From the NCBI RefSeq assembly GCF_002554795.1, contig NZ_PDEQ01000002.1:248001-312000 (forward strand): DNA of 64,000 bases. Reading direction: 5' to 3'. A program made the position numbers and the translations under genes. The notes beneath the pieces are model-generated. The model had not been told where the DNA came from. It saw nothing but the letters and a program-made list of their open reading frames with translations, and did not search any database. Shown here piece after piece: positions 59,974 through 64,000 of this stretch (position 1 is its first letter; each line of letters starts with the position of its first letter). This DNA comes from Longibacter salinarum. GTDB lineage: Bacteria; Bacteroidota; Rhodothermia; Rhodothermales; Salinibacteraceae.

Positions 59974-61140
59974 ATGCCGATCAAACTTCAGGTGGTGAAG
60001 GAAGGAGCCGAGGGTAATGACCCGGCCGATTATCTGTTTGAACAGGAGGAAATTACCATTGGGCGAGGAAGTGGAAATGATCTCACCATCCCTGATCAAA
60101 AGGTCAGTAAGCAGCATGCCAGGATCGTTCAGGATGGCGGAGACTATTATCTGCACGACCGGGAGAGCAAGAACCACACGTTCGTTGCCGGAGCCCGGGT
60201 CGGTGAAGATCGGCCGTATGTTCTGAAGAGTGGCGATGTGATCAATGTCGGGGATTTTCGGATCGAGTTCGTTCCTCTGTTTATGCCGTCCTCGGAGCAG
60301 ACGGCGTTTGCGAGTGCGTCCGAAAATGAGAACCCGTTCGAGAAGCACGCTGCACAGCTCGCGAGTGCTATGAAGGGGTTGGCCGAAACGTACACGTATG
60401 CGCCTGCCGACCAGCGAGACGAGGAACTCGACCGTGCGTTGGGCGGCGCGTTGTCTGGAGCGAAGACGGATGAGCAGGTGGTGCAGACGATGTTTGCTCA
60501 GATGGGAATGGAGGTCGGGGGCGACGGCGCGGCATCGGCCCAAGCGGAGTCGCCCGCATCGGACGGCCGTGGCCAGGCGCCCGAGCATGTGAACGAGGTC
60601 GTCGACATGCTGCTCGAGTCCGTCGCGCGGATGATCAGCATCCCGACGCATTTCTGGCGAGAGTTCAGTGGTAGCACGGTGGTTCAGCCCCCGGAGAAAT
60701 CCTTTCTACACAGAGCCGATATCGACTCACTTCGCCAGCACGTGCTGGATCCGGACATCGGCGATGCAGAGCGAGAGAAGCGCCTTGAGCACCTTCGGGA
60801 GGCCGTCAACACACTCGTTGCGCATAACGTCGCCATGCTTGCGGGGTACAAAAAAGCGGCTATGAAGGGAAGTAAAGACCTTCTCCGCAAGGTGAACCCG
60901 AGCGACGCCTACGACGAGGCCCGCAGCACGGGCGGTGGAGGCTTCTCGAACCTGTTTTCTGCCGGAAGTGAGGGCGGCAAGCCGATCAAGAAGCTATACG
61001 AAGAATGGCGCGAACTCTACTCGATGGAGTGGGGAGCGCTGGAGAAAAAACTATTTCGCCCCACGTACATCGACGCGTACCTCGATCGCATGGCGAAGGC
61101 CTGGGACGTGGACAAGAGCGAAATCGTGGAGGATCGATAG
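59974..61140 (+). CDS. FHA domain protein with TagH-like C-terminal domain
   Basis: A 388-residue protein. The N-terminal FHA domain (residues 1-100) has the phosphothreonine-binding set EITIGRGSGNDLTIP (Arg31), KVSKQHARIV (Ser45, His48) and SKNHTF (Asn67). After a linker, residues about 205-380 (ARMISIPTHFWREFSG; LREAVNTLVAHNVAMLAGYK; KLYEEWRELYSMEWGALEKK) resemble the C-terminal domain of type VI secretion FHA proteins (TagH/Fha). In that pathway Fha is phosphorylated by a PpkA-type kinase and triggers assembly. The kinase gene 68 nt downstream supports the same pairing. No other secretion genes are visible, so the link is inference. Confidence 0.78.
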   Translation: MPIKLQVVKEGAEGNDPADYLFEQEEITIGRGSGNDLTIPDQKVSKQHARIVQDGGDYYLHDRESKNHTFVAGARVGEDRPYVLKSGDVINVGDFRIEFVPLFMPSSEQTAFASASENENPFEKHAAQLASAMKGLAETYTYAPADQRDEELDRALGGALSGAKTDEQVVQTMFAQMGMEVGGDGAASAQAESPASDGRGQAPEHVNEVVDMLLESVARMISIPTHFWREFSGSTVVQPPEKSFLHRADIDSLRQHVLDPDIGDAEREKRLEHLREAVNTLVAHNVAMLAGYKKAAMKGSKDLLRKVNPSDAYDEARSTGGGGFSNLFSAGSEGGKPIKKLYEEWRELYSMEWGALEKKLFRPTYIDAYLDRMAKAWDVDKSEIVEDR

Positions 61141-61208
61141 AATACGGATGAGAGGGTGGGCCCGACGTAATTCGGTCACCGGATAGACGGAAGGAGAAGA
61201 ACGGGAGC

Positions 61209-63425
61209 ATGGACGACGCAGTCATTGGAAAGGAGGTAGACGGCTACCACATCGAGAGCATTCTCGGTCGTGGTGGGATGGGGGTCGTGTACAAAGGCGA
61301 AGATGTCGCTCTGTCTCGTCCGGTTGCACTCAAACGGATTAATCCGGCCCAGGCGCACCGAGAGCAGTTCCTGCGTCGCTTTCGCGCTGAAGCGAAAGCA
61401 CTCGCGCGGATTAACAGCCCCTATATCACGAGCATTTACGCACTTCGTGATACCGATATCGGGCTGCTCATCGTCATGGAGTATGTCGACGGGGGTACGC
61501 TCAAAGATCGGATCGTGGAGGGCCCCATGACGCCGGCTGAGGCTGTACCCATCGTTCAGCAAATCCTGCGATCCTTCCGCGATGCGCACGGCGCGGGGGT
61601 GATCCATCGCGATATCAAGCCGCAGAACATCATGTTGACGTCCGATGGCGACGTCAAAATTACAGACTTCGGCATCGCGAAGCTCCGTCGCCGGGACTCC
61701 GGGGAAACCGTGACACAGGGGGGGCAGGGCGGGACGCTGAAGTACATGTCGCCGGAGCAAATCGAGAAGATCGATGAGGTTGACAACCGCAGCGACCTCT
61801 ATGCTCTTGGCATGACGATGTACGAGATGCTCGCTGGACGCCTCCCGTTCGATGAGCTGGATACGGACTTCGACATTATGCGGAAGGTCGTTGAGGGAGA
61901 CGTTCCGCCTGCGGGAGACTTCGTCCCAAACCTGCCGGCTCCGCTCGCAACGGTGATCGAACGCGCGACCGAGCAAAAGGCAGACGACCGCTATCCCTCA
62001 GCGGATGCCATGCTGGAGGCGCTGGACGAAGCGGCTGAGCGAATCGACGACACGAGTCCGTCGGCGATGTGGGATGTTGCCGAGAGTGATGCGCCCGAGC
62101 AAACGCAGTCGCAGGATACCGATGCAGACACGGCCGCGGATACGGCCGACGGCGACCCGACCGCCGATACGTCACCGGCGGATGACACGTCGGAGGCGGA
62201 CGATGGAACGATCCTCGACGACTCGCTGCTGGACGAGATCGACGGGGGCGCGACCCAACCACCGGCGAAAGCGTCCGGCGGCCCCGCCCCAACGAAGCAG
62301 CACGCCCCCAGTGCCTCTGATCATCGCGGTCGAGACGGGACAACAGACAAAGGTGTCCCGGTCGGCGTTGTGGCCGCCATTGTGGTCGCGATGCTTGCCG
62401 TCGCTGGAGGCGGGTACGTTTTCTTCCAGCCGAGCAGCACCGCGATGTCCACGTTGACCCTGCAAACGAAACCGGGTTCTGCGGTTATCGAGATCGCCGA
62501 TGATAGTGTCGGAGTCACGCCACTGGCGAACCATCAACTGCCGGCGGGGACGCACAGACTCAAGATCCGGAAGTCTGGATTCCAGCCCATCGACACGTCG
62601 GTCACGGTCAAAGAAGGACAGACTCTCGTGCTGAGCGGGTTCGAACTACGCCCGCAACCGGTACAATTCGCTGTGTCTTCTGCTCCATCGGGTGCACGCG
62701 TTCTCGTCGGAAGCAGCGAAATTGGCACCACGCCCATTCAAGGCGCGACCGTGGAGGCCGGGAAGGCACGGGTGCTATTGGAGAAGGGCGGGTACACCTC
62801 GTTCGATACGACCATAACCTTCGAGCCCGGGAGCCAGGTCACGCTGGCGGGACTACAGCTCGATCGGGCCGATGAGGCGTCTACTCGGTCGACACGTGCT
62901 CCTGCGGAATCTGCGCCTTCCCGGCAGCCGGCGGCGTCCGGACGTATATCCGTGACCGCCCCGTCTCAAGTTACAGTCTGGGTCGATGGCGAAGAGCGGA
63001 CAGGAGGCGGTACCTTCCGCCTCGCATCAGGCACTCGAACGGTGCGGTGCCTTCATCCCAGGTATCAGACCATCGAAAGGCAGGTAAATGTGTCTCAAAA
63101 TGACACGGTATCGATATCCTGCGTGTATCAGCACGTAATTTCTGTCAACTCTCTCGCGAGTTGGGGCAATATTTATATCGACGGCGTCAACTCCAAAATA
63201 AGCACGCCGGGGGAGAAGTCGTTGCCGCCAGGAACGTATCGCGTCGAGATTCGAAAGGAGCGAGAGGATGATTTTCGCATCCAAGGCGGTACGTACCGCC
63301 TCACTCCGGCTCAAGGCGGGGAAAACAAGGCGCGGCGAACGTTCGAAACGAGCTATTACGACGTGGAGATTGAGCCCGCATTTCAGAAATACAAGCATTA
63401 CATCACATTCTCCCCGGAATCGTAA
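61209..63425 (+). CDS. Transmembrane Ser/Thr protein kinase with PEGA repeats
   Basis: A 738-residue Hanks-type kinase. GRGGMGVVYKG is the P-loop and VALKRI holds Lys42. VIHRDIKPQNIMLTSDG (Asp135), ITDFGIAK (Asp153) and GTLKYMSPEQ complete the active kinase core (residues 1-270). An acidic low-complexity linker follows, then one TM helix (GVVAAIVVAMLAVAGGGYVF, about 381-404), and three periplasmic PEGA-type domains, each ending near APSGARV or VTVWVDGE motifs. All catalytic residues are intact. The likely target is the FHA protein encoded just upstream; the periplasmic part would sense an envelope signal. Confidence 0.92.
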   Translation: MDDAVIGKEVDGYHIESILGRGGMGVVYKGEDVALSRPVALKRINPAQAHREQFLRRFRAEAKALARINSPYITSIYALRDTDIGLLIVMEYVDGGTLKDRIVEGPMTPAEAVPIVQQILRSFRDAHGAGVIHRDIKPQNIMLTSDGDVKITDFGIAKLRRRDSGETVTQGGQGGTLKYMSPEQIEKIDEVDNRSDLYALGMTMYEMLAGRLPFDELDTDFDIMRKVVEGDVPPAGDFVPNLPAPLATVIERATEQKADDRYPSADAMLEALDEAAERIDDTSPSAMWDVAESDAPEQTQSQDTDADTAADTADGDPTADTSPADDTSEADDGTILDDSLLDEIDGGATQPPAKASGGPAPTKQHAPSASDHRGRDGTTDKGVPVGVVAAIVVAMLAVAGGGYVFFQPSSTAMSTLTLQTKPGSAVIEIADDSVGVTPLANHQLPAGTHRLKIRKSGFQPIDTSVTVKEGQTLVLSGFELRPQPVQFAVSSAPSGARVLVGSSEIGTTPIQGATVEAGKARVLLEKGGYTSFDTTITFEPGSQVTLAGLQLDRADEASTRSTRAPAESAPSRQPAASGRISVTAPSQVTVWVDGEERTGGGTFRLASGTRTVRCLHPRYQTIERQVNVSQNDTVSISCVYQHVISVNSLASWGNIYIDGVNSKISTPGEKSLPPGTYRVEIRKEREDDFRIQGGTYRLTPAQGGENKARRTFETSYYDVEIEPAFQKYKHYITFSPES

Positions 63426-63599
63426 TGTTGTTTTCAGTTTCGTGGTACAAAATGCCCCGATCGTTCACGTAGTGGGCGGAAAGTAATTTCTTTTTGTCTA
63501 AATGTGGCCCGCGCCTTGCGGGATGGAGTACACAGAGTTTCTGGATTCATCCATTGGATTATCTCTTGCTGCACGATCAATAGGTTAAGGTGACCCCAT

Positions 63600-64000
63600 A
63601 TGCAGGAACGTGCTACGACTCGAAGGTCTCGACTTCACCCGCTGTTGCTGGTGACGGTTCTCCTCCTGATGGGAGTGACGGCCGTCCACGCCCAGGATTC
63701 GGTTCTCAAGCAGGCGAAGGAGGAGTATCAGTTCGCGGAGTATGATAAGGCGAGCGAACTTTTTGCGCAGGTAGCGGACAATGAATCTGCCTCCAAAGCG
63801 GATCGATCGCAGGCGCTACGGTACTTGGCTCGCGTGTACGTTGCGAAGAATAAACAGTCGAAGGCGCGTGATGCTGTCCGGCAGCTTCTCAAGATGAAGC
63901 CGGGGGCCGAGTTCGATCCCGATGTGGAGCCGCCACCCATCATGCAGATCTACTATGATGTGCGCAAAGAGATGGATGGATATGGCGTGCAAAATGACGC
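63600..64000 (+). CDS. Secreted TPR-like protein (3' partial)
   Basis: The frame opens with ATG at 63600 and runs past the right edge. It encodes a signal peptide (LLLVTVLLLMGVTAVHA before QDSVL) and helical repeats (QAKEEYQFAEYDKASELFAQ; RYLARVYVAKNKQSKARDAV), then LLKMKPGAEFDPDVEPPPIM. The FDPDVEPPPIM stretch after a short TPR block is common in periplasmic partner proteins of PEGA kinases and lipoprotein-like surface proteins. It is probably part of the same cluster as the FHA and kinase genes. Remaining domains are outside the window. Confidence 0.75.
   Translation, partial: MQERATTRRSRLHPLLLVTVLLLMGVTAVHAQDSVLKQAKEEYQFAEYDKASELFAQVADNESASKADRSQALRYLARVYVAKNKQSKARDAVRQLLKMKPGAEFDPDVEPPPIMQIYYDVRKEMDGYGVQND

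What the first reader, a model, noticed from the sequence alone, without database searches (positions are those of the whole stretch)
59974..64000. FHA (TagH-like) plus PEGA kinase plus TPR protein: edge of a possible secretion-control cluster
The FHA protein has a C-terminal half like type VI secretion Fha/TagH, and the adjacent intact kinase matches the PpkA role of phosphorylating Fha. A secreted TPR protein follows. T6SS or related contractile systems with this post-translational switch are little described in Rhodothermota. The rest of the cluster lies beyond the right edge.
Basis: partly seen in the sequence, partly recalled or inferred. Interest (0 to 1): 0.6.

Follow-up and report, generated by a model that had tools for sequence, protein, structure and literature searches.

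The report
Stranded type VI secretion control module
The window ends in the first half of a six-gene cell-envelope signalling set (a phosphothreonine reader, a membrane kinase and secreted partners) that related bacteria keep beside a type VI secretion 'harpoon', but that this bacterium and several relatives keep intact without any harpoon genes found.

Summary
In detail: an FHA protein, an intact PEGA kinase and the start of an exported TPR protein lie at 59974-64000. Past the edge the set is FHA, kinase, two TPR/CsgG-domain proteins, a 2270-aa protein with a type IX sorting tail and an outer-membrane-like protein; respiratory genes follow. The FHA C-terminal half is homologous to T6SS TagH (profile comparison E 3e-37 against TagH of relatives). 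But this 99.8%-complete genome has no TssC, TssK or phage-type sheath, so the cluster is not the edge of a T6SS. Across 394 phylum genomes the kinase-CsgG1-CsgG2 module mostly sits beside T6SS genes, there usually with an FHA-transglycosylase protein and sometimes a PP2C phosphatase. In the window's family an orphan lineage (9 of 27 genomes, 5 without detected TssC) pairs it with a TagH-type FHA. Kinase and CsgG1 trees nest it among T6SS-linked modules. FHA and kinase are under strong purifying selection (dN/dS 0.06, 0.02), and the phosphothreonine pocket is intact. Best reading: a T6SS-derived threonine-phosphorylation module kept as a stand-alone envelope sensor. Homology and module kinship are shown; signal, phosphorylation and output are inferred. 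New variant of a known kind.

The parts
59974..61140 (+). TagH-type FHA protein, 388 aa
60052..60252 (+). FHA domain (res 27-93) with intact pThr pocket G30 R31 S45 H48 N67
   Evidence: Pfam 2e-20; residue table
60301..60303 (+). Thr110 in E-Q-T just after the FHA domain: predicted kinase target (inference)
   Evidence: invariant in all 9 orphan orthologs; absent from the two T6SS TagHs whose pThr pocket is degenerate and from two solo FHAs
60586..61113 (+). C-terminal helical domain homologous to T6SS_FHA_C (TagH)
   Evidence: hhalign vs TagH E 2.8e-37; PF20232 subthreshold here, above cut-off in T6SS paralogs
61209..63425 (+). Ser/Thr kinase with TM and PEGA repeats, 738 aa
62343..62432 (+). 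predicted transmembrane segment of the kinase (res ~379-408)
   Evidence: hydropathy
63600..64000 (+). CsgG1: exported TPR + CsgG-domain protein; gene continues to position 64667 equivalent (L002 5600-6667). Rest of set outside the window: CsgG2 lipoprotein L002 6968-8281, 2270-aa choice-of-anchor-D/T9SS-tail protein L002 8387-15199, OMP-like L002 15204-16373

Best explanation
A stand-alone trans-envelope threonine-phosphorylation module derived from the T6SS control apparatus of this lineage. Proposed working: the exported giant and OMP-like protein at the outer membrane and the two periplasmic/lipoprotein TPR-CsgG proteins report an envelope event to the PEGA repeats of the kinase; the kinase phosphorylates a threonine (candidate: Thr110 of the FHA protein, otherwise another partner); the FHA domain binds the phosphothreonine in cis or trans; and the TagH-type C-terminal domain then recruits or releases an assembly target that is no longer T6SS (T9SS-exported surface material or envelope machinery is the leading candidate). 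Shown: gene set, domains, homology, absence of T6SS marker genes, purifying selection, nesting of kinase and CsgG1 among T6SS-linked modules. Inferred: signal, phosphorylation site, output.
For: C-terminal half homologous to bona fide TagH. No TssC, TssK or phage-type sheath in a 99.76%-complete genome. Orphan FHA orthologs in 9 of 27 family genomes; 5 of these lack TssC, including G000 and G023 (3 contigs, 98% complete). FHA-kinase-CsgG1-CsgG2-giant order conserved in orthologs where contigs reach, OMP seen in own and G019. Kinase-CsgG1-CsgG2 module beside T6SS genes in most relatives outside the orphan clade; genome-level association 9/15 vs 7/379, Fisher p 9e-11, phylogeny not corrected. 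Orphan kinases and CsgG1 each form one clade nested among T6SS-linked ones. dN/dS 0.06 (FHA) and 0.02 (N-terminal kinase) against a congener. pThr pocket and Thr110 invariant in the orphan clade. T9SS SprA present in the genome.
Against: No output target is identified. No PP2C phosphatase in this set, though one is present in several T6SS-linked modules. G081/G274 have the module without T6SS and with other FHA proteins, so the module may have been T6SS-independent first. The FHA tree is unrooted, so descent from a T6SS TagH (rather than the reverse) is not proven. The genome is a 22-contig assembly.
Confidence: 0.6

Rival explanations
1. An ancient T6SS-independent envelope-stress kinase module (kinase, CsgG pair, giant, OMP) that T6SS clusters in this phylum repeatedly recruited; the orphan form keeps the original role and merely acquired a TagH-type FHA.
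For: Modules without T6SS and with different FHA proteins in G081 and G274; they branch near the base in the kinase and CsgG1 trees, weakly supported.
Against: Most modules outside the orphan clade are in T6SS genomes (8 of 12), and the orphan clade is nested among those.
Confidence: 0.25
2. A decaying remnant of a lost T6SS with no function of its own.
For: T6SS marker genes absent; solo TagH-like FHAs at the equivalent respiratory-gene locus in G004 and G005 look like relics.
Against: Intact frames in many genomes, dN/dS 0.02-0.06, conserved pocket and gene order, presence alongside a separate T6SS with its own TagH in G016 and G020.
Confidence: 0.05
3. A T6SS regulator acting on a T6SS that lies in an assembly gap.
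For: 22 contigs; congener G003 has T6SS genes.
Against: T6SS spans ~15-20 kb; TssC and TssK both absent at 99.76% completeness, and G023 in 3 contigs lacks TssC too.
Confidence: 0.06

Closest known systems
Threonine phosphorylation pathway of T6SS (TagQRST-PpkA-PppA-Fha1, Pseudomonas aeruginosa; TssW-PpkA-Fha, Acidovorax citrulli; PMC12607579, PMC10482370)
   Same: TagH-type FHA, membrane kinase with extracytoplasmic C-terminus, outer-membrane/periplasmic partners encoded beside it
   Different: No T6SS in the genome; PEGA repeats; TPR-CsgG proteins, T9SS-tailed giant and OMP instead of TagQRST/TssW; no phosphatase in the set
TagH/Fha (TIGR03354, PF20232)
   Same: FHA plus homologous C-terminal domain, full-length alignment with T6SS TagH at 27-34% identity
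   Different: Below TIGR03354 cut-off, not in a T6SS cluster, separate clade
FHA-SLT / PP2C / PEGA kinase / CsgG1 / CsgG2 module beside T6SS in Rhodothermota relatives (found here)
   Same: Homologous kinase, CsgG1, CsgG2, giant, OMP in similar order
   Different: There the FHA carries a TM and a transglycosylase domain; a PP2C gene and a TssB-TssC-like protein may precede it

Membership tests
Type VI secretion system | Sheath TssC (PF05943) in genome | tested here: not met
   family members G016, G020 ring
Type VI secretion system | Baseplate TssK (PF05936) in genome | tested here: not met
Type VI secretion system | tss genes adjacent | tested here: not met
   respiratory genes follow
Contractile phage-type systems | Phage_sheath_1 (PF04984) | tested here: not met
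   other sheath families not tested
TagH/Fha | N-terminal FHA with pThr pocket | tested here: met
TagH/Fha | C-terminal T6SS_FHA_C domain | tested here: inconclusive
   Homology shown through T6SS TagH of relatives; Pfam score itself below cut-off (13 bits here, best ortholog 19.6 vs 23.7)
TagH/Fha | TIGR03354 above curated cut-off | tested here: not met
   82.3 vs 120.25 bits
TagH/Fha | Encoded in a T6SS cluster | tested here: not met
PpkA-type T6SS kinase | Cytoplasmic kinase, TM, extracytoplasmic domain | tested here: met
   (TM by hydropathy only)
PpkA-type T6SS kinase | Phosphorylates Fha or TssL | not testable with these tools
   needs biochemistry
Threonine phosphorylation pathway | PppA-type PP2C phosphatase in the set | tested here: not met
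   none among the six genes; rest of genome not searched

The most novel reading that the evidence does not exclude
T6SS's phosphothreonine switch and its TagH reader have been redeployed to control a different envelope process, probably T9SS-exported surface material, in a lineage that lost the T6SS.
Probability: 0.3. Interest if true: 0.75.

Novelty: new variant of a known kind. Interest (0 to 1): 0.5.

Why it matters
What the TagH C-terminal domain does is unclear. A natural version that works without any T6SS, next to T6SS-bound versions in the same family, would let that domain's function be separated from secretion. It also documents an undescribed T6SS-linked control module (FHA-transglycosylase, PP2C, PEGA kinase, CsgG pair) in this phylum; full-text searches for the combination found no paper in the held library.

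Tried and rejected
T6SS at the right edge: rejected. Phage-type contractile system: no PF04984. Anti-phage defence: only generic kinase hits in PADLOC, no partners. TssQ identity of the TPR protein: weak N-terminal hit only, 35 vs 65 bits, and TssQ is described as a single-TM periplasmic protein of Bacteroidota T6SS (PMC10781749); rejected. Solved structures: only the FHA domain matches. AlphaFold of the FHA protein: C-terminal half predicted helical but low confidence (mean pLDDT 56.6), so no fold search. Promoter/terminator scan: no excess over shuffles. Two malformed alignment calls and one family search failed on strand/frame and were redone.

Full report
Observation. The three genes are present as described. 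The FHA domain, kinase and PEGA repeats are strong Pfam matches. The third protein, read across the edge, is a 355-aa exported TPR-CsgG protein.

What follows to the right. A second TPR-CsgG protein with a lipobox-like start, a 2270-aa protein with choice-of-anchor-D repeats and a T9SS sorting tail, and a 389-aa OMP-like protein without a family match. Then genes resembling quinone reductase/alternative complex III subunits. No secretion gene follows.

Is there a T6SS? TssC, TssK and phage-type sheath give no match in the 99.76%-complete genome; the same TssC search finds T6SS in 8 of 27 family genomes.

TagH homology. One search found close orthologs (53-85%) and distant full-length relatives (27-37%). 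The distant ones in G016, G020 and G026 lie about 11 kb from TssC, in standard T6SS clusters. Profile comparison of the C-terminal halves gives E 2.8e-37; reversed and shuffled controls give 0.08-0.7. T6SS TagHs of relatives exceed the PF20232 cut-off in three of four, and the orphan orthologs score below it. In 394 phylum genomes, full-length TagH-type FHA proteins occur with TssC in the genome in all but G000, G023 and the fragmented G277.

The module. A CsgG1 profile showed that the kinase-CsgG1-CsgG2 set lies close to T6SS genes in G056, G361, G204, G157, G242, G373 and G025. There the FHA partner is usually an FHA-TM-SLT protein, with a PP2C gene in G242 and G025 and also in the T6SS-less G081, and often a TssB-TssC-like protein upstream. 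In G157 and G204 TagH itself lies next to the module, which would allow the orphan arrangement to arise by loss of the tss genes (inference).

Trees. FHA: orphan proteins and T6SS TagHs fall on opposite sides of a fully supported branch, unrooted. Kinase and CsgG1: the orphan group is one supported clade nested among T6SS-linked modules, nearest the congener's second module.

Function retained. dN/dS is 0.06 for FHA and 0.02 for the N-terminal 211 residues of the kinase against congener G003. The pThr pocket and Thr110 are invariant in the orphan clade; the two T6SS TagHs with a degenerate pocket also lack the Thr (one evolutionary event).

Mechanism. By analogy with PpkA-Fha, where the kinase phosphorylates Fha and triggers assembly (PMC12607579, PMC10482370, and TssL in PMC3953482), the kinase is proposed to convert an envelope event into FHA binding. 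The genome has T9SS SprA, so the giant can be exported. Signal and output remain inference.

Noticed in passing
L127 13261-15180, L130 16694-18526, L134 7369-9300, L060 8705-10570: A ~610-640-aa protein matching both TssB (VipA) and TssC (VipB) profiles, apparently a fused sheath paralog, precedes the T6SS-linked kinase module in relatives (in L060 it lies without it).
   Followed up: partly
L128 3078-4751, L061 8022-9884: FHA proteins with one TM segment and a C-terminal SLT transglycosylase domain in T6SS-linked modules: a possible phospho-controlled peptidoglycan enzyme.
   Followed up: partly
L057 8611-9774, L058 6622-7806: Solo TagH-like FHA genes beside the respiratory genes in G004 and G005, where the whole module sits in this genome; possible relics.
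   Followed up: partly
L052 17680-18867, L053 748-1926: T6SS TagHs of G016 and G020 have lost the phosphothreonine pocket (S45 to R, N67 to E).
   Followed up: partly
L140 14013-16304: Protein fusing a pyridine-nucleotide oxidoreductase, FHA domains and a 2Fe-2S domain next to a T6SS-free kinase module.
   Followed up: no
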